Positions 1,600 to 50,672 of a DNA stretch of 64,000 bases are shown here, one piece after another. Origin of the DNA: Streptomyces tsukubensis (lineage in GTDB: Bacteria > Actinomycetota > Actinomycetes > Streptomycetales > Streptomycetaceae); contig NZ_CP045178.1 in assembly GCF_009296025.1 (NCBI RefSeq), forward strand, positions 2,294,001-2,358,000, read 5' to 3'. How positions within the stretch are numbered: position 1 is the first letter of the stretch; each line of letters opens with the position of its first letter. The notes below the pieces were generated by a model. The model had not been told where the DNA came from. It worked only from the letters and a program-made list of their open reading frames with translations, and did not search any database. Both the position numbers and the translations under genes were made by a program.

Positions 1600-1667
1600 T
1601 TCCCTCGTCGGTTCTTGGTCCCTGTCCCCACCGGTGATTCGTACCGTCCACAAGAGAGAGTGTGAGA

Positions 1668-2588
1668 GTGCTCGTACTCGTCGCTCCCGGCCAAGGCGCT
1701 CAGACGCCCGGCTTCCTGTCCCCCTGGCTCGACCTGCCAGGCGTCACCGACCGAGTGGCCGGCTGGTCCGAGGCCATCGGGCTCGACCTCGTCCACTACG
1801 GCACCAAGGCCGACGCCGACGAGATCCGTGACACGGCGGTGGCTCAGCCGCTGCTCGTCGCCGCGGCCCTGCTGTCGGCCGGCACCCTCGGCGATGTCCG
1901 CCCCGGCGCCGTGGCCGGCCACAGTGTCGGCGAGTTCCCCGCTGCCGTGCTCGCGGGTGTGTTCGACGAGGTCACGGCCTTGAAGCTGGTACGCCGTCGC
2001 GGCCTCGCGATGGCCGAGGCGGCCGCCGTCACGGAGACGGGCATGTCCGCGCTCCTCGGCGGAGAGCCCGACACGGTCGTCCCGCACCTCCAGAAGCTGG
2101 GGCTCACCCCGGCCAATGTGAACGGCGCGGGCCAGATCGTGGCAGCCGGTACCGCGGCACAGCTCGCGGCCCTCGCCGAGGACAAGCCCGAGGGCGTCCG
2201 TCGGGTCGTCCCGCTGAAGGTCGCGGGGGCGTTCCACACCGAGCACATGGCCCCCGCCGTCGAGCGGCTCGCCGAGAGCGCGCGGGAGCTGACCCCGTCC
2301 GAGCCGACGGTGACCTACGTCTCCAACCGGGACGGTTCGCCGGTCGAGACCGGCGGGGAGGTACTCTCCCGGCTTGTCGGTCAGGTGGCCAACCCGGTCC
2401 GCTGGGATCTGTGCATGGAGACCTTCAAGGAGCTGGGGGTGACCGCTCTCGTCGAGGTGTGCCCAGGTGGCACACTGACGGGTCTCGCCAAGCGTGCCCT
2501 TCCGGGCGTAAAGACGTTGGCACTCAAGACGCCCGATGATCTTGATGCCGCCCGCACGCTGATTGCCGAGCACTCGACCACGGCGTGA
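1668..2588 (+). CDS. fabD: Malonyl-CoA:ACP transacylase
   Basis: This enzyme moves malonyl groups from CoA to acyl carrier protein in type II fatty-acid synthesis. The 306-residue protein has the GQGAQT oxyanion loop at its N-terminus, the nucleophile motif GHSVGE (Ser about 86) and the catalytic His in AGAFHTEHM (about 190). A GTG at 1662 is also possible; 1668 gives the usual start MLVLVAPGQGAQT and better spacing from the AGAGAGAG at 1653-1660. It is the first gene of the fab operon, with fabH 26 bases downstream. Confidence 0.95.
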   Translation: MLVLVAPGQGAQTPGFLSPWLDLPGVTDRVAGWSEAIGLDLVHYGTKADADEIRDTAVAQPLLVAAALLSAGTLGDVRPGAVAGHSVGEFPAAVLAGVFDEVTALKLVRRRGLAMAEAAAVTETGMSALLGGEPDTVVPHLQKLGLTPANVNGAGQIVAAGTAAQLAALAEDKPEGVRRVVPLKVAGAFHTEHMAPAVERLAESARELTPSEPTVTYVSNRDGSPVETGGEVLSRLVGQVANPVRWDLCMETFKELGVTALVEVCPGGTLTGLAKRALPGVKTLALKTPDDLDAARTLIAEHSTTA

Positions 2589-2614
2589 GAAGCCGGACAA
2601 GGAGCCCCGAGACC

Positions 2615-3616
2615 ATGTCGAAGATCAAGCCCAGCAAGGGTGCCCCACACGCGCGCATCCTGGGCGTCGGCGGCTACCGTCCGACCCGTGTCGTGCCGAA
2701 CGAGGTGATCCTGGAGACGATCGACTCGTCCGACGAGTGGATCCGTTCCCGTTCCGGGATCGCCAGCCGTCACTGGGCGAACGAGGAGGAGACCGTCACC
2801 GCGATGTCGGTGGAGGCCTCCGGTAAGGCGATCGCCAACGCCGGGATCGCGCCCGAGCAGATCGGCGCCGTGGTCGTCTCCACCGTCTCGCACTTCAAGC
2901 AGACCCCCGCCGTGGCGACGGAGATCGCGGACAAGGTCGGCGCGGGCAGGCCCGCCGCGTTCGACATCTCCGCGGGCTGCGCCGGTTTCGGCTACGGCCT
3001 GACGCTCGCCCGAGGCATGATCGTCGACGGCAGCGCGCAGTACGTCCTGGTCATCGGCGTGGAGCGGCTCTCCGACCTGACCGATCTGGAGGACCGTGCG
3101 ACGGCCTTCCTGTTCGGTGACGGTGCCGGCGCGGTCGTCGTGGGCCCTGCGGAGGAGCCGGCGATCGGCCCCACCGTGTGGGGCTCCGAGGGCGACAAGT
3201 CCGAGACGATCAAGCAGACCGTGGCGTGGACCGACTACCGCGACGGCACGGTCGACAAGTTCCCTGCGATCACGCAGGAAGGCCAGGCGGTTTTCCGCTG
3301 GGCCGTGTTCGAGATGGCGAAGGTCGCCCAGCAGGCGCTGGACGCGGCCGGAATCACCGCGGACGACCTGGACGTCTTCATTCCGCACCAGGCCAATATG
3401 CGGATCATCGACTCGATGGTGAAGACATTGAAGCTGCCGGATCACGTCACGGTCGCCCGTGACGTGGAGACCACCGGCAACACCTCGGCCGCCTCGATCC
3501 CGCTCGCGATGGAGCGGCTCCTGGCGACCGGTAAGGCGAAGAGCGGCGACACCGCGCTCGTCATCGGCTTCGGGGCGGGTCTCGTCTACGCCGCGACGGT
3601 CGTTACCCTCCCCTAG
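2615..3616 (+). CDS. fabH: 3-oxoacyl-ACP synthase III (initiating ketosynthase)
   Basis: FabH condenses a short acyl-CoA starter with malonyl-ACP and so sets the branched or straight starter of actinomycete fatty acids. The ATG at 2615 follows AAGGAG. The 333-residue protein shows the Cys-His-Asn triad: Cys122 in DISAGCAGFG, His about 258 in IPHQANMR and Asn about 288 in GNTSAAS, followed by the C-terminal GFGAGL loop. It lies between fabD and acpP and is probably co-transcribed with both. Confidence 0.96.
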   Translation: MSKIKPSKGAPHARILGVGGYRPTRVVPNEVILETIDSSDEWIRSRSGIASRHWANEEETVTAMSVEASGKAIANAGIAPEQIGAVVVSTVSHFKQTPAVATEIADKVGAGRPAAFDISAGCAGFGYGLTLARGMIVDGSAQYVLVIGVERLSDLTDLEDRATAFLFGDGAGAVVVGPAEEPAIGPTVWGSEGDKSETIKQTVAWTDYRDGTVDKFPAITQEGQAVFRWAVFEMAKVAQQALDAAGITADDLDVFIPHQANMRIIDSMVKTLKLPDHVTVARDVETTGNTSAASIPLAMERLLATGKAKSGDTALVIGFGAGLVYAATVVTLP

Positions 3617-3745
3617 GCACATCTTCCGGATCTTCCAGCGATGCACGTCGGCTCGGCCCACCAGGTCTGATCTGATCGTCACCGCTGGTACGCCCGGACA
3701 GACGTCGCCACACCCCTCTGGAACAGATACCGAAGGAGCGCCATC

Positions 3746-3994
3746 ATGGCCGCCACTCAGGAAGAGATCGTCGCCGGTCTCGCGGAGATCGTCAACGAGA
3801 TCGCCGGCATCCCGGTCGAGGACGTCAAGTTGGAGAAGTCCTTCACCGACGACCTGGACGTCGACTCGCTGTCCATGGTCGAGGTCGTCGTCGCAGCCGA
3901 AGAGCGCTTCGACGTCAAGATCCCGGACGACGACGTCAAGAACCTCAAGACGGTCGGCGACGCGACCGACTACATCGTCAAGCACCAGAGCTGA
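3746..3994 (+). CDS. acpP: Acyl carrier protein
   Basis: An acidic 82-residue protein with the phosphopantetheine attachment site DLDVDSLSMVEVV (Ser41). It carries growing acyl chains between the fatty-acid synthase enzymes. The ATG follows GAAGGAG seven bases upstream. A 129-base gap separates it from fabH, and a small hairpin follows it at 4033-4054, which may tune its expression relative to fabF, since ACP is usually needed in excess. Confidence 0.97.
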   Translation: MAATQEEIVAGLAEIVNEIAGIPVEDVKLEKSFTDDLDVDSLSMVEVVVAAEERFDVKIPDDDVKNLKTVGDATDYIVKHQS

Positions 3995-4032
3995 CCTCGG
4001 GACGCCGGGAGCCGCGTCCGCGCCACCGGGGC

Positions 4033-4054
4033 CAGGCCCGTCACCACGGGCCTG
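4033..4054 (+). terminator. Hairpin between acpP and fabF, possible attenuator or processing site
   Basis: CAGGCCCGT (4033-4041) and ACGGGCCTG (4046-4054) form a perfect 9-base stem with loop CACC. There is no T-tract, so partial termination or mRNA end protection for acpP is more likely than a full stop. Confidence 0.45.
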
Positions 4055-4195
4055 CTCCGGAGCACGGGGCGTCCTCCCGGCCTCCGGACCGCGCTCGGCG
4101 CTCATCCGCCGTGACCCGCGCGGATCACCGCGTGACTGCCGCCACCCGGCGGTAGCGCCGTTCAAATCCCTCGTAACCGTGGAGAGAGAATTCCT

Positions 4196-5458
4196 GTGAG
4201 CCCGACCAATCGCACCGTGGTCGTCACCGGTATCGGCGCAACCACACCGCTGGGTGGCGACGTAGCGTCCACTTGGGAAGGACTGCTCGCGGGACGCTCC
4301 GGCGTCCGGCCGCTCACCGAGGAGTGGGCCGAGCAGCTTCCCGTCCAGATCGCCGCCCGGGTCGCTGTCGAGCCCGGCGAGATCCTGCCCCGGCCGCAGG
4401 CCCGCAAGCTGGACCGTTCGGCACAGTTCGCGCTGATCGCCGCCGCGGAGGCCTGGAAGGACGCCGGTTTCACCGCGAAGGCCGGCGAGGACGCCTCCGT
4501 CGACCCCGACCGCCTCGGGGCTGTCATCGCCTCCGGTATCGGCGGTGTGACGACCCTGCTCGACCAGTACGACGTGCTGCGGGAGAAGGGCGTACGCCGC
4601 GTCTCCCCGCACACCGTGCCGATGCTGATGCCCAACGGCCCCGCCGCCAACGTCAGCCTTCAGGTCAACGCCCGTGCGGGCGCCCACACCCCCGTCTCGG
4701 CCTGCGCCTCGGGCGCCGAGGCCATCGGCTACGCGGTCGAGATGATCCGTACGGGCCGCGCCGACGTGGTGATCGCGGGCGGTACGGAGGCGGCCATTCA
4801 CCCGCTTCCCATCGCCGCCTTCGGCAACATGATGGCGATGTCCAAGGAGAACGACAATCCTGAGGGCGCCTCGCGCCCCTTCGACACCACGCGTAACGGC
4901 TTCGTGCTGGGCGAGGGCGCTGGTGTGGTCGTTCTGGAGTCCGCCGAGCACGCCGCCGCGCGCGGTGCCACGGCGTACGCGGAGGCCGTGGGCCAGGGCA
5001 TCTCCGCCGACGCCCACCACATCACCGCCCCCGAACCGACCGGCAACGGCATCGCCAAGGCGCTGGAGAACCTGCTGAAGGGTTCCGACCTCGACCCGAG
5101 CGAGATCCAGTACGTGAACGCGCACGCCACGTCCACCCCGATGGGTGACCTCGGCGAGATCAAGGCGCTCCACAAGGTCTTCGGCCCCGACCTGGACCAC
5201 ATGGCCGTCTCGTCCACCAAGTCGATGACCGGGCACCTGCTCGGCGGCGCCGGTGGTATCGAGTCGGTGGCGACGATCCTGTCCCTGAAGCACCGGCTCG
5301 CCCCGCCGACCATCAACATCACCGAGCTCGACCCCGAGGTGACCGCGGACATCATCCGCGACGAGCCGCGCAAGCTGCCCGAGGGCCGGATCTCCGCGCT
5401 CAACGACTCCTTCGGTTTCGGCGGCCACAACGTGGTCCTCGCCTTCCGTACGGTCTGA
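4196..5458 (+). CDS. fabF: 3-oxoacyl-ACP synthase II (elongating ketosynthase)
   Basis: A thiolase-fold elongation enzyme of 420 residues. The Cys-His-His triad is visible: Cys about 170 in SACASGAEAIG, His about 310 in NAHATSTPMGD and His about 346 in STKSMTGHLLGGAGG, with the C-terminal NDSFGFGGHN loop. The GTG at 4196 follows GGAGAGAG. It closes the fab operon; a strong terminator lies about 170 bases downstream. Confidence 0.96.
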   Translation: MSPTNRTVVVTGIGATTPLGGDVASTWEGLLAGRSGVRPLTEEWAEQLPVQIAARVAVEPGEILPRPQARKLDRSAQFALIAAAEAWKDAGFTAKAGEDASVDPDRLGAVIASGIGGVTTLLDQYDVLREKGVRRVSPHTVPMLMPNGPAANVSLQVNARAGAHTPVSACASGAEAIGYAVEMIRTGRADVVIAGGTEAAIHPLPIAAFGNMMAMSKENDNPEGASRPFDTTRNGFVLGEGAGVVVLESAEHAAARGATAYAEAVGQGISADAHHITAPEPTGNGIAKALENLLKGSDLDPSEIQYVNAHATSTPMGDLGEIKALHKVFGPDLDHMAVSSTKSMTGHLLGGAGGIESVATILSLKHRLAPPTINITELDPEVTADIIRDEPRKLPEGRISALNDSFGFGGHNVVLAFRTV

Positions 5459-5460
5459 AC

Positions 5461-5600
5461 GACTGATCGGATCGGCTGAACGCTGGACGACTGGACGGCC
5501 GGACAGCTGAACGACTGGACGGCCGGTCCCGGCCGATCGGACGGACGACCGGACGGTCCGGGCCGCCCCGGCACCGGACGGTCCGAGCGCCCCGGTCACG
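5461..5600. repeat. Degenerate short repeats after fabF
   Basis: The spacer between fabF and its terminator contains imperfect repeats built from GACTGGACGGCCGG (seen twice between about 5490 and 5524) and GGACGGTCCG-like units. No convincing gene is present. Simple slipped-strand expansion is the likely origin. Confidence 0.6.
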
Positions 5601-5631
5601 GAGACGAGCCCCCGGCTCGGTCACGAAGAAG

Positions 5632-5676
5632 AGCCCCTGGCTTCGGAACACACCGTTCCGGAGCCAGGGGCTTTTC
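5632..5676 (+). terminator. Strong rho-independent terminator of the fab operon
   Basis: An 18-base stem starting AGCCCCTGGC (5632) pairs with the arm ending GCCAGGGGCT (5672), with one G-T pair and the loop ACACC at 5650-5654, followed by TTTTC. It would also serve the converging minus-strand gene at 5799. Confidence 0.9.
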
Positions 5677-5798
5677 TGCGCGTCTGCGCGCTGTTCTTCG
5701 TAGGCCGGAGGCATCGATCACCACCAGACCCCCGGACGGACCCCCGCGACCCGGGAAAACAGCCACCGGATGGCCGTCACCCGGACGGGAACCGCCGG

Positions 5799-6293
5799 TC
5801 AGACCACCTGGTGCAGCCACCGCACGGGAGCGCCCTCGCCCGCGTACCTGAAGGGTTCGAGTTCGTCGTCCCAGGGTTTGCCCAGGAGCCGGGTCAGCTC
5901 GTTCTCCAGGCCCGTCTCCCCGGCCTGTGACCGGGTCAGCGCGGCGCGCAGCCGGTCCTCGGGGATCAGGATGTCGCCGTGGATACCGGTGACGGCGTGA
6001 AAGATGCCGAGTTCGGGCGTGGCGCTGTACCTCTCGCCCTCCGCGCCCGCGCTGGGCTCAGCCGTGACCTCGAAGCGCAGCAGCTGCCAGCCGCGCAGCG
6101 CCGAGGCCAGCTTGGACGCGGTGCCCGCCTCGCCCTGCCAGGAGAACTCGGCTCTCCAGGTACCGGGCGCGGCGGGCTGCCTGATCCAGTCGAGGCTGAC
6201 ACGCACGCCTAGTACGCCCGCGACCGCCCATTCGACGTGCGGACACAGCGCGCGCGGTGCGGAGTGCACGTACAGAACTCCACGTGTCGTCAC
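5799..6293 (-). CDS. DUF3145 family protein
   Basis: A soluble 164-residue protein of a family found almost only in actinobacteria and commonly encoded next to the fab operon. The start MTTRGVLYVHSAPRALCPHVEWA is the family's typical N-terminus, so the GTG at 6293, preceded by GGAGGT, was preferred over a start 69 bases further out. No catalytic motif is seen and the function is unknown. It converges on fabF. Confidence 0.85.
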   Translation of the reverse strand: MTTRGVLYVHSAPRALCPHVEWAVAGVLGVRVSLDWIRQPAAPGTWRAEFSWQGEAGTASKLASALRGWQLLRFEVTAEPSAGAEGERYSATPELGIFHAVTGIHGDILIPEDRLRAALTRSQAGETGLENELTRLLGKPWDDELEPFRYAGEGAPVRWLHQVV

Positions 6294-6631
6294 CGGGACC
6301 TCCAGTGTGGGACGAGGTGCGCCTCCGGCGGCCTCGCGCCCCTGCCGAGCGATTTTCCCCAAATGGGACAGATGTGACGTGATGTAATTTAGCGGAACCG
6401 TAACAGCGGGCTGTCACCGGGTCGGGGGGCCGCCAAATCGCAGGCGAGTCGGCGGTGGCGAGGGCTGTCACGGGGCAAAGCTACCGTGCGGGAACGGCGG
6501 GAGTGTGACGTACGGTCGGTCCCGGGGCCTGGAAACACCAAGCTTTCACCCGGCAGGACGCTGCCGGACCGTCAAGGGGTCACTGTGCGCGCCGACCGTG
6601 CGCCGGAGGACCGGCGGAAGGAGACCTGGGA
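6294..6631. other. Divergent promoter region, no gene seen
   Basis: These 338 bases separate the DUF3145 gene from the GDSL lipoprotein gene. An AT-richer patch (about 6360-6405) near the DUF3145 start may hold its promoter. Open frames here have neither ribosome sites nor recognisable protein. Confidence 0.6.
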
Positions 6632-46830: not shown

Positions 46831-47187
46831 CAAACATCGCGACGCGAGTGACCTCGACACCGATCCGAACACCGCCGCCGCAACGTCGCGCGACAGGCGG
46901 GCGGAGTCCGTCGCAACGGGCGGATGCCGCTCGGCACGGAGCGGGTGCCGCTCGGCACGGAGCGGGTGCCGCTCGGCGGCGCGGCAGCCGTATGCGTCCT
47001 GCACGGCGTGGAGGCACCGCTACGGCTGACAGCCGCGGAGGCGGGCGGGGGGTTGGAGGCGGCCTACCGACGCTTCCTCGACCGACCGGCACTCGTCCGC
47101 GTCGCACTGCTGCTCATGACGCTCGGCGACACCGGAGCGAAACGGCCCTTCGGGCGCATATTCACGCGCGGCCCGAAAATAGAGACC
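46831..47187. other. Region with a 21-base tandem repeat and no supported gene
   Basis: Two exact copies (apart from the first base) of a unit ending CCGCTCGGCACGGAGCGG start at 46924 and 46945, and part of a third follows. A plus-strand frame beyond it reads GGGLEAAYRRFLDRPALVRV, faintly like a regulator's last helices, but has no start or family signature. It may be what is left of the regulator for the palindrome. Confidence 0.45.
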
Positions 47188-47221
47188 AGGGCTGTCCCGA
47201 AATCTCTGTCGGGACAGCCCT
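47188..47221 (-). terminator. Terminator of the lysozyme-like/propeller gene
   Basis: AGGGCTGTCCCGA (47188-47200) and TCGGGACAGCCCT (47209-47221) form a perfect 13-base stem with an 8-base loop. The stem begins inside the stop codon; on the minus strand it is followed by a TCTCTATTTT-type tract. Confidence 0.9.
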
Positions 47222-48116
47222 CAGACGGGCTGCCAGGGTTTGAAGTCGCTTCCGGGGCCGGATTTGTTTCCGGTGGCCCAGAATCCGCCGTCAGTACCAC
47301 GGACATAGATACTGATACTGCCATCAGCGAATTGCAGGACAGACGGCTGCCCGACAAATTTCCCACCGTCACTCAACCGCTGCCAGGAATGATCAAAATC
47401 CCCACCCGGCGCCTTCTGACCCATCCCATTAACACTGCCATCCGCAAGCACCGCATACGTCGCAAGCGTCCCATTCGACCGCAACACCACCACCGGACCA
47501 CCAGCGACCGCCATCGCCCCACCCGGCGAAGTCTGCTGCCACGGCTTGAAATCACTACCCGGCCCACCCTTGTTCCCCGTCCCCAAAATCACACCCCGCC
47601 CCGTGCGCACATACACACTCACCGTCCCATCAGGAAACTGCACCACCGAAGGACGCCCCACAAAACCACCCTCACTCAACCGCTGCCAGGAATGATCAAA
47701 ATCCCCACCCGGCACCTTCTGACCCATCCCATTAACACTGCCATCCGCAAGCACCGCATACGTCGCAAGCGTCCCATTCGACCGCAACACCACCACCGGA
47801 CCACCAGCGACCGCCATCGCCCCACCCGGCGAAGTCTGCTGCCACGGCTTGAAATCACTACCCGGCCCACCCTTGTTCCCCGTCCCCAAAATCACACCCC
47901 GCCCCGTGCGCACATACACACTCACCGTCCCATCAGGAAACTGCACCACCGAAGGACGCCCCACAAAACCACCCTGAGAACTCAACTGCTGCCACGGACC
48001 AAAAAGACCACCAGGCGCCGCCTGACCCCTCCCGTACACATTGCCATCCGACTGCACCGCATACGTCCCGATCGTGCCATTCCGGAACAACACCATCTCC
48101 GGACCACCCAGACCGG
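47221..48116 (-). repeat. 896-base repeat, copy A (propeller module)
   Basis: This segment aligns without gaps to 48644-49539 (offset 1423), with a small number of base differences, mainly around 48,901-48,938 in the partner. It ends exactly at the head/propeller junction of the two genes. Within it a 303-base unit occurs twice (for example 47373 and 47676). Confidence 0.9.
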
Positions 48117-48579
48117 TGGAGCCGACAGTCCTCTCCGCCTCCGCGATCAGCGAACGGGCAGTCGATTCAACCTGATCGTAACGTTCCGGAAAGGCGGAGC
48201 GCTGTACCGCTTGAGCAAGATGGCCCGCGGTGTAACCGGGGTTCTTCCGATCCGCGTCGATGGCCCGTCGCAAGAATGACGCGGTGGCATACGCGACGTC
48301 CCTGCATTGCTCGACCGTCCCCCAACCCTGGCTGGGGCGCTGCTGGAATACGCCAACCGAATCACGGTCCCCGCAGGGGAGGTTATTCATACGAGACTCG
48401 ACCCAGCCGGCCTCGAATGCGGCAAGTTGCACCTTGTTGTTCACTTGCAGCTCGACGCAGACTCGATAGACGGTCTTCGTCACCTCAAGGTCACGGGTCG
48501 CAGGCACGGGACAAGCCGCTGCGGCTGAAGAGCCGAGTAAGGTTGCCGGTACGCGGTCCGCTGTAATGTCGCCGCTCAT
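47221..48579 (-). CDS. Lysozyme/transglycosylase-like head fused to a lectin-type beta-propeller
   Basis: A 452-residue protein. Residues 31-150 look like a lysozyme-superfamily domain (AAFEAGWVESRMNNL with Glu56/Glu61, then GDRDSVGVFQQRPSQGWG). Residues 155-452 are about six beta-blades of roughly 50 residues resembling the PLL/tectonin-like lectin propellers (PSVVQFPDGTVSVYVRTGRG, VVLRSNGTLATYAVLADGS). No signal peptide is seen. The pair of blades repeats as an exact 101-residue unit. It likely cuts peptidoglycan while the propeller binds glycans. The next gene upstream carries the same propeller with a different head. Confidence 0.75.
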   Translation of the reverse strand: MSGDITADRVPATLLGSSAAAACPVPATRDLEVTKTVYRVCVELQVNNKVQLAAFEAGWVESRMNNLPCGDRDSVGVFQQRPSQGWGTVEQCRDVAYATASFLRRAIDADRKNPGYTAGHLAQAVQRSAFPERYDQVESTARSLIAEAERTVGSTGLGGPEMVLFRNGTIGTYAVQSDGNVYGRGQAAPGGLFGPWQQLSSQGGFVGRPSVVQFPDGTVSVYVRTGRGVILGTGNKGGPGSDFKPWQQTSPGGAMAVAGGPVVVLRSNGTLATYAVLADGSVNGMGQKVPGGDFDHSWQRLSEGGFVGRPSVVQFPDGTVSVYVRTGRGVILGTGNKGGPGSDFKPWQQTSPGGAMAVAGGPVVVLRSNGTLATYAVLADGSVNGMGQKAPGGDFDHSWQRLSDGGKFVGQPSVLQFADGSISIYVRGTDGGFWATGNKSGPGSDFKPWQPV

Positions 48580-48643
48580 TCGTGTCCGCCGCCTTCTGTT
48601 TCGTTGCTGTGGAAAACCCCTCGGACCTGTTCACGCGGCTGCC

Positions 48644-49539
48644 TCAGACGGGCTGCCAGGGTTTGAAGTCGCTTCCGGGGCCGGATTTGTTTCCGGTGGC
48701 CCAGAATCCGCCGTCAGTGCCACGGACATAGATACTGATACTGCCATCAGCGAATTGCAGGACAGACGGCTGCCCGACAAATTTCCCACCGTCACTCAAC
48801 CGCTGCCAGGAATGATCGAAATCCCCACCCGGCGCCTTCTGACCCATCCCATTAACACTGCCATCCGCAAGCACCGCATACGTCGCAAGCGTCCCATTCG
48901 GCCGCAACACCACCTCCGGATCCCCGACAACCGCCATGGCCCCACCCGGCGAAGTCTGCTGCCACGGCTTGAAATCACTACCCGGCCCACCCTTGTTCCC
49001 CGTCCCCAAAATCACACCCCGCCCCGTGCCCACATACACACTCACCGTCCCATCAGGAAACTGCACCACCGAAGGACGCCCCACAAAACCACCCTCACTC
49101 AACCGCTGCCAGGAATGATCAAAATCCCCACCCGGCACCTTCTGACCCATCCCATTGACACTGCCATCCGCAAGCACCGCATACGTCGCAAGCGTCCCAT
49201 TCGACCGCAACACCACCACCGGACCACCAGCGACCGCCATCGCCCCACCCGGCGAAGTCTGCTGCCACGGCTTGAAATCACTACCCGGCCCACCCTTGTT
49301 CCCCGTCCCCAAAATCACACCCCGCCCCGTGCGCACATACACACTCACCGTCCCATCAGGAAACTGCACCACCGAAGGACGCCCCACAAAACCACCCTGA
49401 GAACTCAACTGCTGCCACGGACCAAAAAGACCACCAGGCGCCGCCTGACCCCTCCCGTACACATTGCCATCCGACTGCACCGCATACGTCCCGATCGTGC
49501 CATTCCGGAACAACACCATCTCCGGACCACCCAGACCGG
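48644..49539 (-). repeat. 896-base repeat, copy B (propeller module)
   Basis: This is the second copy of the propeller-encoding segment, with its own 303-base internal repeats (for example 48796 and 49099). Near identity at silent positions implies recent duplication or continuing gene conversion. Confidence 0.9.
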
Positions 49540-50020
49540 ATTGTCGACCGGTCCACCACGTGGTCTCCTTCCGGGCACCGGGCCAGCCGAAGCTGAGGTG
49601 AACGTGATCCGTATGCGCACTGCTTCCGCTGTAAGCCGACGAAGAATGGTTGCTCGCCTGCCAGATGCGGCGGTTCCAGATGAGATACATGATCCCCATA
49701 CGCCGAGCGAGCGCGTGAGGATTGTTCCACCGGTCAGTCGCCAGCAACCAGTTGACCAGGGCATCCCCTTGCTCACGTTGGGCGCCGTCATTGGCGTTGA
49801 AGGGGTAGTCCAGTGCCCGGCCCTCTTTGTGTTCACTCGTCCCGACCGCATTGCAGGGACGGACAATACCGAGGTCGGGGCGGCCATAAGTGGACCGCAG
49901 GAGATCCCTGATTTCCAGAACACCCGGCTTCGCTGTCGGATCGCAGCCCGTCTGACCGTGGTAGGGCTGGTAATTGTCGATACCGGCCCCGAAATCAGGA
50001 GCGGGCGGAGTCAGAACCAC
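48644..50020 (-). CDS. M15/LAS-type peptidase-like head fused to the same lectin-type propeller
   Basis: A 458-residue protein. Residues 1-160 resemble the D,D-carboxypeptidase-like domain seen at the C-terminus of actinobacterial cell-wall enzymes: His64 and Asp71 in HKEGRALDY, and HTDHVHLSFGW (136-146) giving the H-x-H zinc ligands. Residues 162-458 are the six-blade propeller, almost identical to that of the downstream gene. No signal peptide. The GTG at 50020 follows AGGGGAAC. It probably cleaves peptide cross-links of peptidoglycan. Confidence 0.75.
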   Translation of the reverse strand: MVLTPPAPDFGAGIDNYQPYHGQTGCDPTAKPGVLEIRDLLRSTYGRPDLGIVRPCNAVGTSEHKEGRALDYPFNANDGAQREQGDALVNWLLATDRWNNPHALARRMGIMYLIWNRRIWQASNHSSSAYSGSSAHTDHVHLSFGWPGARKETTWWTGRQSGLGGPEMVLFRNGTIGTYAVQSDGNVYGRGQAAPGGLFGPWQQLSSQGGFVGRPSVVQFPDGTVSVYVRTGRGVILGTGNKGGPGSDFKPWQQTSPGGAMAVAGGPVVVLRSNGTLATYAVLADGSVNGMGQKVPGGDFDHSWQRLSEGGFVGRPSVVQFPDGTVSVYVGTGRGVILGTGNKGGPGSDFKPWQQTSPGGAMAVVGDPEVVLRPNGTLATYAVLADGSVNGMGQKAPGGDFDHSWQRLSDGGKFVGQPSVLQFADGSISIYVRGTDGGFWATGNKSGPGSDFKPWQPV

Positions 50021-50672
50021 TGATGTTCCCCTGTTCGATTCTGCTTGGCATGGGCAGAGCCGTTACTTCTTCATGCGGTCAGCGAGTGCTCACATGTACA
50101 CACCAGCTACGGACCGGTCAGCTACGGACCAGCAAGATGGACTGCGTGCCTGCACGTATTCCAGGCCGCAGGTTCACCTCTCGTCATTTCCCTCGGCTCG
50201 TACGAGGCCAATTCTCCTCGCCTGGACCTGAGTTGAGCGACGAAAATTCCACGGGACCACTCGGACGAGGTACAGAGAGGGCCTGATCCACCGCGGCGTC
50301 CCTGACACCTGACACCTGACACCTGACCCGACGTGCGGATCCTCAGGTCCTCGTACGCGATGCGGTCGTGCGCACCAATGACCGGAGCGAGGCCTACGCG
50401 TCCACGGGACCAGGTACCGGCGCCTCCGCCCCGGGCTCCCGCAGCCCCCCGTGTGACACCGGGCACCAGGCGATGGACCTGCTCAGATCAGCTCACACCG
50501 ATCCATCGGGCCATCGGGCCATCGGGCCATCGGGCCATCGGGCCATCGGGCCATCGGGCCATCCAGGGTCGTGTCGGCACCATGGCCCCGTACAAGGCTC
50601 TGGCAGCCGTGCGTGATTCTCGCGAAGGGGCCCGCTGTCGGCTGATGGCGACGGCCCGAGCCGCCGGGAGGG
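50021..50672. other. Repeat-bearing intergenic region
   Basis: A 652-base stretch between the propeller gene and the glycosyltransferase gene. It includes three copies of CTGACAC (about 50302-50327) and the octamer array at 50503-50558. No frame has both a ribosome site and protein character. Confidence 0.6.
50503..50558. repeat. Seven perfect tandem copies of CCATCGGG
   Basis: The octamer is repeated seven times without change and followed by a diverged unit (CCATCCAG). It is a simple-sequence tract, not a CRISPR array, as there are no spacers. Confidence 0.97.

What the first reader, a model, noticed from the sequence alone, without database searches (positions are those of the whole stretch)
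47221..50020. Two different peptidoglycan-hydrolase heads on one shared lectin-like propeller
Adjacent same-strand genes encode a lysozyme-like head (Glu56/Glu61, GDRDSVGVFQQRPSQGWG) and an M15/LAS-like zinc-peptidase head (His64, Asp71, HxH at 139-141), each joined to an almost identical six-blade propeller. A glycan-strand cutter and a peptide cutter guided by one binding module is a logical two-part wall-attack or remodelling system. Neither has a visible signal peptide.
Basis: partly seen in the sequence, partly recalled or inferred. Interest (0 to 1): 0.75.

Follow-up and report, generated by a model that had tools for sequence, protein, structure and literature searches.

The report
Paired wall-cutting enzymes sharing one propeller
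[quoted passage not shown] related bacteria carry a different targeting part, again the same in both enzymes, which suggests a two-part wall-cutting tool with an exchangeable aiming device.

Summary
Two same-strand genes (48644-50020, 47221-48579) carry unrelated heads on a six-bladed propeller (292 of 298 residues identical; 12 of 894 nt differ). Head A is an MT3/VldE-type zinc peptidase: all six residues needed for activity in pneumococcal VldE (an L,D-endopeptidase) are present, equally spaced within each motif. Head B is a muramidase head, related by profile to fungal GH184 enzymes and to phage tape-measure lysozyme domains. The propeller is PLL-like, but 1 of 6 blades keeps the PHL fucose-pocket trio: "lectin" is unproven.

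In 12 of 12 VldE+muramidase pairs where both carry a tail, both carry the same tail type, although types differ between lineages (about 35% identity or less) while heads stay conserved. Several tail pairs are homogenised in DNA, in one genome with the genes 2.26 Mb apart (98.7% over 984 nt). One species fuses both into one ORF. The Streptomyces pairs seen lack recognisable leaders.

Best reading: a two-cut wall-hydrolase cassette with an exchangeable, matched targeting module. Against: 72 of 84 VldE loci show no adjacent partner, and 4 muramidase partners lack most or all of the tail. Activity, target and export route are unknown.

The parts
48644..50020 (-). Gene A: MT3/VldE-type zinc peptidase head plus six-bladed PLL-like propeller, 458 aa, no leader found
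49547..50020 (-). Head A (aa 1-158), LAS-type L,D-endopeptidase-like
   Evidence: relatives carry precomputed PF26571; profile A5 against solved VldE 9flh E=6e-4
49808..49831 (-). Zinc ligands H64 and D71 (equivalent to VldE H301 and D308)
   Evidence: SEHKEGRALD motif; 90% or more conserved in A5; mutational data in PMC11667670, passages
49598..49615 (-). H136, D138, H139, H141 (equivalent to VldE H370, D372, H373, H375)
   Evidence: HTDHVH, same spacing as in VldE; D138 is N in L022, L024, L026 and L027
48644..49540 (-). Tail A: six-bladed PLL-like propeller (aa 161-458 and stop)
48580..48643 (.). 64-nt gap between genes A and B
47221..48579 (-). Gene B: muramidase-type head plus the same propeller, 452 aa
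48118..48579 (-). Head B (aa 1-154) with GDRDSVGVFQQRPSQGWG; E61 likely catalytic, E56 less conserved
   Evidence: profile A4 against muramidases 8b2h E=2.1e-7 and 8b2e E=1.3e-5; PHROG tape-measure family E=2.6e-24
48397..48399 (-). E61 of gene B, proposed catalytic Glu
   Evidence: invariant in the ten rows of A4 (so is E56); by eye E61 but not E56 is kept in the divergent heads of L055 and L082; assignment inferred
47221..48117 (-). Tail B: propeller, 292/298 aa identical to tail A

Best explanation
The two genes form a two-enzyme peptidoglycan-hydrolase cassette. Enzyme B cuts the glycan strand (muramidase). [quoted passage not shown] Both are brought to the same place by the same beta-propeller, so the two cuts fall together and open the wall. 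The propeller is an exchangeable targeting module: different lineages carry different ones (PLL-like/DUF346, FG-GAP types), both partners carry the same one, and gene conversion keeps the two copies alike. Shown here: head families, shared tail, matched tails in all pairs with two tails, DNA-level homogenisation in several of them, no recognisable leader. Inferred: catalysis, that the propeller binds a wall or surface glycan, cooperation, gene conversion as the cause, and release of the leaderless forms by lysis or a non-classical route.
For: Catalytic residues of head A are present and mapped to VldE. Head B matches solved muramidases and phage tape-measure and endolysin families. Adjacency in 7 of 13 genomes against 0.02 expected. 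Matched tails in 12 of 12 pairs with two tails. In the same-type pairs L064, L067 and L074 the tails of one locus are 94.1, 99.9 and 94.8% identical over 954 nt, while all 12 comparisons between species give 77.6-83.8%. In G738 the genes lie 2.26 Mb apart, yet tails are 98.7% identical over 984 nt and an upstream 82-nt element is 85% identical. Both enzymes lie in one ORF in Actinomadura rifamycini.
Against: Pairing is not obligate: 12 of 84 distinct VldE loci have a lysozyme head in the fetched flank (many flanks are cut by contig ends), and G036, G094, G163 and G407 have no strong partner anywhere in the genome. Four muramidase partners (L045, L046, L062, and the unlinked one of G234) lack most or all of the tail. 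Nearest neighbours are not always within the pair (L054_L, L092_V, and marginally L064_V); L065 and L082 tails are only 72-75% alike in DNA. One unlinked tailed pair was seen, not several. Only 1 of 6 window blades keeps the PHL fucose trio and none the galactose trio. No activity data. Leaderless proteins must still reach a wall.
Confidence: 0.6

Rival explanations
1. The matched tails are a by-product of neighbourly gene conversion between two independent wall enzymes; no functional coupling.
For: Tails of tandem genes are long, near-identical and internally repeated, good conversion substrates. Solo VldE genes with the same tail types exist.
Against: Conversion between neighbours alone does not easily explain the match across 2.26 Mb with a shared upstream element, nor the fusion, nor why both genes carry the same type in each lineage (12 of 12). 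A recent move of one gene in G738 is not excluded, and it is a single case.
Confidence: 0.2
2. The proteins are normally secreted and the missing leader is a gene-model artefact (unusual start codon, frameshift or unrecognised weak leader, especially in B).
For: B has a weakly hydrophobic start, VPATLLGSSAAAAC (hydropathy 1.53); in-frame stretches upstream of L024_V, L037_V, L046_L and L074_V reach 1.54, 1.41, 1.74 and 2.13. Relatives outside the leaderless group have clear leaders.
Against: No hydrophobic stretch in any frame upstream of A. Leaderless relatives in many species begin where the leader-bearing relatives appear to be cleaved (MAPTAPDFGP, MAPCPVPPDRDL). The leader state agrees within pairs.
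Confidence: 0.12
3. Cargo of a contractile injection system, or part of a phage-tail-like particle, since both heads have relatives in phage tape-measure proteins.
For: MT3 is named after the TM4 tape measure (PMC1796659, passages); head B matches tape-measure families. Leaderless cargo fits; tape-measure-related effectors of a Streptomyces injection system are published (PMC13277306, abstract and passages).
Against: No phage-sheath match (PF04984) in the window's own genome; 6 of 12 leaderless-VldE genomes have one against 17 of 24 other Streptomyces genomes.
Confidence: 0.05
4. Developmental autolysins for the producer's own wall, released in hyphal death or sporulation.
For: B has a TTA codon at position 14, a mark of bldA-dependent genes in Streptomyces (recalled). 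Leaderless hydrolases fit a role at lysis.
Against: Patchy: VldE-type matches in 14 of 392 Streptomyces genomes. Exchange of targeting modules suggests a varying target. No TTA in gene A or in the 12 other leaderless genes examined.
Confidence: 0.2

Closest known systems
VldE (Spr1875) MT3-domain L,D-endopeptidase, PDB 9flh and others
   Same: All six activity-essential residues with the same spacing within each motif; profile match to the solved domain; LAS type
   Different: Spr1875 joins LysM to MT3; here MT3 is N-terminal on a beta-propeller and without a leader. [quoted passage not shown] its Fig. S20 was not seen)
GH184 muramidases (8b2e, 8b2h) and lysozyme domains of actinophage tape-measure proteins
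   Same: DRDSVG-FQQR core and the part after it align (E=1.3e-5 and 2.1e-7); PHROG tape-measure match
   Different: The aligned part does not reach the catalytic Glu; the paper states that bacterial GH184 members lack the SH3-like wall-binding module (passage); here a propeller takes that place
PLL-family lectins of Photorhabdus (PLL, PLL2-5, PHL)
   Same: Closest solved sequences and Foldseek's top 22 chains for the propeller; also without a recognised signal peptide, and PLL2 and PLL3 were reported in the extracellular fraction (PMC12203525, passage)
   Different: Seven blades and stand-alone; here six blades, fused to enzymes, pocket residues mostly absent
Modular endolysins and bacteriocins (enzyme head plus exchangeable wall-binding module)
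   Same: Works like them: catalytic head plus a swappable targeting domain (recalled class knowledge)
   Different: Two enzymes whose targeting modules differ between lineages together; no holin or phage context seen among five neighbours

Membership tests
MT3/VldE endopeptidase | Zinc ligands H, D, H (VldE H301, D308, H375) | tested here: met
   H64, D71, H141; each 90% or more conserved in A5
MT3/VldE endopeptidase | Essential H370, D372, H373 before the last ligand | tested here: met
   H136, D138, H139 in the window. D138 is N in four of the six relatives in A3
MT3/VldE endopeptidase | Sequence relation to the solved domain | tested here: met
   A5 against 9flh E=6e-4, aligned over profile positions 102-143 only; with the 7-row A3 only E=0.2
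MT3/VldE endopeptidase | LAS fold | not tested
   head predicted with confidence as part of model A, but neither the head nor model A was compared with known folds
MT3/VldE endopeptidase | Hydrolysis of L-Ala-D-Glu | not testable with these tools
   no enzymology
Peptidase M15 (Pfam models) | Match to a Pfam M15 model | tested here: not met
   hmmscan of gene A's protein against Pfam-A, no M15 model at E up to 1
GH184-type muramidase | Profile similarity to GH184 structures | tested here: met
   A4 against 8b2h E=2.1e-7, 8b2e E=1.3e-5
GH184-type muramidase | Catalytic Glu equivalent to KsGH184 Glu41 | tested here: inconclusive
   alignment starts after it; E61 proposed by conservation
PLL lectin family | PLL-type propeller by sequence and fold | tested here: met
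PLL lectin family | Seven blades | tested here: not met
   six blades
PLL lectin family | Fuc pocket (PHL Thr194, Trp199, Trp214) and Gal pocket (Arg186, Glu188, Trp202) | tested here: not met
   Fuc trio in 1 of 6 blades (the last), Gal trio in none, read by eye from the alignment and the blades; residues from passages
CIS effector | Contractile sheath gene in the genome | tested here: not met
   no PF04984 match in G000
Phage endolysin in a prophage | Adjacent phage genes | tested here: inconclusive
   five window neighbours scanned: two glycosyltransferases, an alpha/beta hydrolase, a putative esterase, one without Pfam hit; the rest of the window was not scanned

The most novel reading that the evidence does not exclude
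A bipartite bacteriolytic weapon (or self-lysis kit) whose two enzymes are aimed by one interchangeable propeller: lineages swap the aiming module in both enzymes at once and hold the copies identical by gene conversion, even when unlinked, because both cuts must fall on the same cell type. Having shed their leaders, the proteins are freed by lysis, as colicins are.
Probability: 0.25. Interest if true: 0.8.

Novelty: new variant of a known kind. Interest (0 to 1): 0.58.

Why it matters
Modular wall hydrolases are familiar. Two enzymes that carry the same targeting domain in each lineage, a different one between lineages, and keep the two copies alike were not described in any title or abstract start listed by the ten searches here (open-licence papers only, and only some of these searches were aimed at this point). 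If the coupling is functional, it says that the two cuts must be made at the same target, and the natural variety of propellers is a ready set of candidate wall-binding modules whose targets can be found by binding assays. The lack of leaders in both partners also poses a clear secretion question in Streptomyces.

Tried and rejected
Pfam and NCBIfam scans of the two proteins found no usable domain; the local Pfam copy did not return PF26571 or PF26607, which the protein database lists for relatives, so family assignment rests on relatives and on profile searches against the PDB. Seven rows (A3) gave only E=0.2 to VldE; 41 rows (A5, one of them a short fragment) gave 6e-4. Heads could not be folded alone (both prediction jobs went to the full proteins), and the structure searches of model B are dominated by the propeller; model A was not searched. 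Phages: protein A has a match in 1 of 50,697 records (residues 6-158), protein B in 361, none covering 80% of it. Plasmids: 2 of 72,556 records for A, one of them over 89% of the query at 32% identity in a Streptomyces sp.; 149 for B, none over 80%. Contractile-injection delivery was tested and not supported. A conserved neighbourhood (AAA ATPase regulator-like gene, carboxylesterase) occurs beside L022, L024 and L027 (the regulator also beside L026), but not among the predicted genes near the window pair. Searches for papers on leaderless secretion and on concerted evolution of such domains listed nothing relevant.
Full report
What is in the window. The window lies at C2:2294001-2358000 of a two-contig 8.63-Mb genome. 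Genes A (48644-50020) and B (47221-48579) are consecutive on the minus strand with 64 nt between them. The tails are 292/298 identical, with 12 differences in 894 nt touching 11 codons. The homologous block runs from the head/tail border to the stop codon; BLAST finds no convincing match between the heads. Both genes have low third-position GC (0.64-0.71) against 0.77-0.95 for the genes predicted in the window, which were picked partly by that bias; recent acquisition is a possible reason (inference).

Head A. Relatives carry precomputed PF26571 (P0001, 67% identical over 99% of the query). A profile of 41 heads (A5) finds pneumococcal VldE (9flh) at E=6e-4 and, at 0.023, 9fln, which has Ala at the first His of HxH and is presumably the H373A form. 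The VldE paper (PMC11667670; [quoted passage not shown] The window has H64, D71, H136, D138, H139 and H141 with the same spacing inside each motif. D138 is N in L022, L024, L026 and L027, so some relatives may differ in activity. The model is confident (pLDDT 91.9), but its fold was not compared with others.

Head B. A profile of ten heads (A4) finds muramidases 8b2h (E=2.1e-7) and 8b2e (1.3e-5), described as GH184 (PMC10394673; passages). The same region matches a phage tape-measure family (E=2.6e-24) and endolysin families and has matches in 361 of 50,697 phage records. MT3, the family of head A, is named after the TM4 tape-measure protein, where the domain supports peptidoglycan hydrolysis (PMC1796659; passages). 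So both heads belong to families found in phage proteins that degrade walls.

More than two heads use this tail type. P0008 carries CHAP (Pfam E 4.4e-13); P0004 carries a head with a DCSGY motif (resembling NlpC/P60, recalled; no Pfam hit). P0003 (lysozyme head) and P0004 have tails 92% identical to each other and 65-67% to the window tails; both list a longest contig of 82,592 bases, so they may lie on one contig.

Pairs elsewhere. One search examined 88 loci holding a VldE head (7 + 80 + the window). The 80 are the best of 194 relatives, and many flanks are cut by contig ends. VldE comes first and lysozyme second in all of these except L055, where the order is reversed. One search found VldE-type matches in 14 of 392 Streptomyces genomes; I left out G007 and G380, whose VldE genes bear leaders, and added G738, the best match (120 of 394 genomes of the class). 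Of these 13 genomes, 7 have the muramidase head within 3 kb (G000, G032, G048, G093, G241, G275, G388); 0.02 would be expected by chance, P about 3e-17 (the profile A3 was built from seven such loci, four of them paired, the window included, so the sample is not independent of the finding). G738 and G234 have a strong but unlinked partner; G036, G094, G163 and G407 have none at that strength.

Tails match within pairs. In all 12 pairs in which both genes carry a tail, the tail type is the same: window, L054, L064, L067, L074, L065, L082, L092 and P0074/P0227, L161, G738 (L164/L178), L055 (93% over 147 residues, after which both reading frames lose the likeness). P0074 and P0227 are assumed to share one contig because both list a longest contig of 77,322. 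Within-pair identity is 65-100%; between tail types it is about 35% or less or undetectable, while VldE heads are 51-90% and lysozyme heads 42-94% alike. For example L054 and L064 have heads 85% (VldE) and 86% (lysozyme) identical but tails 32-34% identical, whereas within each pair tails are 88% and 96% identical. By Pfam the tails differ in family: DUF346 in L054 and P0074, FG-GAP in L082 (FG-GAP_3 just under its cut-off in L065), FG-GAP_3 and CBM_35_2 over cut-off in L064. Four muramidase partners lack the tail or keep at most a fragment of its first blade: L045, L046, L062 (unrelated DNA follows) and L179, the unlinked one of G234.

Homogenisation. In the three same-type pairs L064, L067 and L074, V and L tails of one locus are 94.1, 99.9 and 94.8% identical over 954 nt; all 12 comparisons between species, same gene or cross, give 77.6-83.8%. 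Other within-pair values: L161 99.2%, L054 87.2%, L092 89.9%, L082 74.6%, L065 72.3%. Nearest neighbours among the tails compared are mutual within the pair for window, L067, L074, L161, L065, L082 and P0074/P0227; L064_V is marginally closer in score to a solo tail (L066_V), L054_L is closer to P0121 and L024_V, and L092_V to P0123 among others. The pattern is concerted evolution, strong in some lineages and weak in others.

Two natural experiments. In G738 (one contig of 7,396,071 bases) the VldE and muramidase genes lie 2.26 Mb apart, both without a recognisable leader; their tails are 98.7% identical over 984 nt (13 mismatches) and 99.4% in protein, against at most 78.6% for the nine other tails compared. 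An 82-nt stretch upstream of both genes is 85% identical, as if they share a control element; a palindrome-like GCGCGTGATC...GATCACGCGC occurs upstream of several other VldE genes of the group (the two halves as exact 10-mers in 7 and 6 of 25 upstream stretches), and was not seen upstream of window gene A. Recent relocation of one gene is not excluded. The other unlinked partner, in G234, has no tail. In Actinomadura rifamycini (L092) both enzymes lie in one uninterrupted ORF, VldE-propeller-muramidase-propeller, 919 aa from the first Met; the second propeller is shorter.

Leaders. Leader-bearing and leaderless forms were told apart by hydropathy, start codons and eye, not SignalP. Leaderless proteins start at MAPTAPDFGP or MAPCPVPPDRDL, where leader-bearing relatives appear to be cleaved. 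The state agrees within pairs: leaderless in L045, L046, L054, L062, L064, L067, L074, L161 and G738 (and one leaderless ORF in L092); leader-bearing in L055, L065, L082 and P0074/P0227. Exceptions to a clean call: in-frame stretches upstream of L024_V, L037_V, L046_L and L074_V reach hydropathy 1.4-2.1. The window's A is leaderless; B is leaderless or has a decayed leader. Export by a contractile injection system is not supported: the window's genome has no sheath match, and 6 of 12 leaderless-VldE genomes have one against 17 of 24 others.

How it most likely works. B opens the glycan strand, A cuts stem peptides, and the shared propeller brings both to the same surface. Whether that surface belongs to a competitor or to the producer's own dying hyphae is open; patchy distribution and module exchange favour a varying target, the TTA codon in B favours developmental timing, and both can be true. 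[quoted passage not shown] its supplementary figure was not seen). The joint exchange and homogenisation of the targeting module was in no title or abstract start listed by the ten literature searches.

Noticed in passing
window 48538-48540: Gene B has a TTA codon at position 14 (bldA-type control in Streptomyces, recalled); gene A has none.
   Followed up: partly
window 50104-50130: A tandem direct repeat GGTCCGTAGCTG lies about 85-110 nt upstream of gene A, a possible operator (read).
   Followed up: no
window 46924-48279 and 48566-50023, plus strand: Long antisense ORFs (451 and 485 aa, Arg/His-rich repeats) mirror the propeller DNA; probably a composition artefact.
   Followed up: no
L022, L024, L026, L027: A large regulator-like gene (AAA_16 by Pfam in L027, related by BLAST in the others) sits near the VldE gene in these four loci, and a divergent carboxylesterase in three of them (L022, L024, L027).
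   Followed up: partly
L158, L063, L068, L073, L067, L074 (and with changes L064, L066) upstream of the VldE gene: Conserved inverted repeat like GCGCGTGATC...GATCACGCGC, probably a shared control element; by eye a related sequence lies upstream of both unlinked genes of G738.
   Followed up: partly
L105 (= L167) 4968-6621: Two VldE heads in tandem genes, both with leader-like starts.
   Followed up: no
L180 (G275:C60) 4561-4959: An additional muramidase head of the same family with a leader-like start and no propeller, while the full pair lies elsewhere in the same genome.
   Followed up: no
window 1662-5458: Genes resembling the primary fatty acid synthase cluster (acyltransferase, KAS III, ACP, KAS II), judged from N-termini only.
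   Followed up: no
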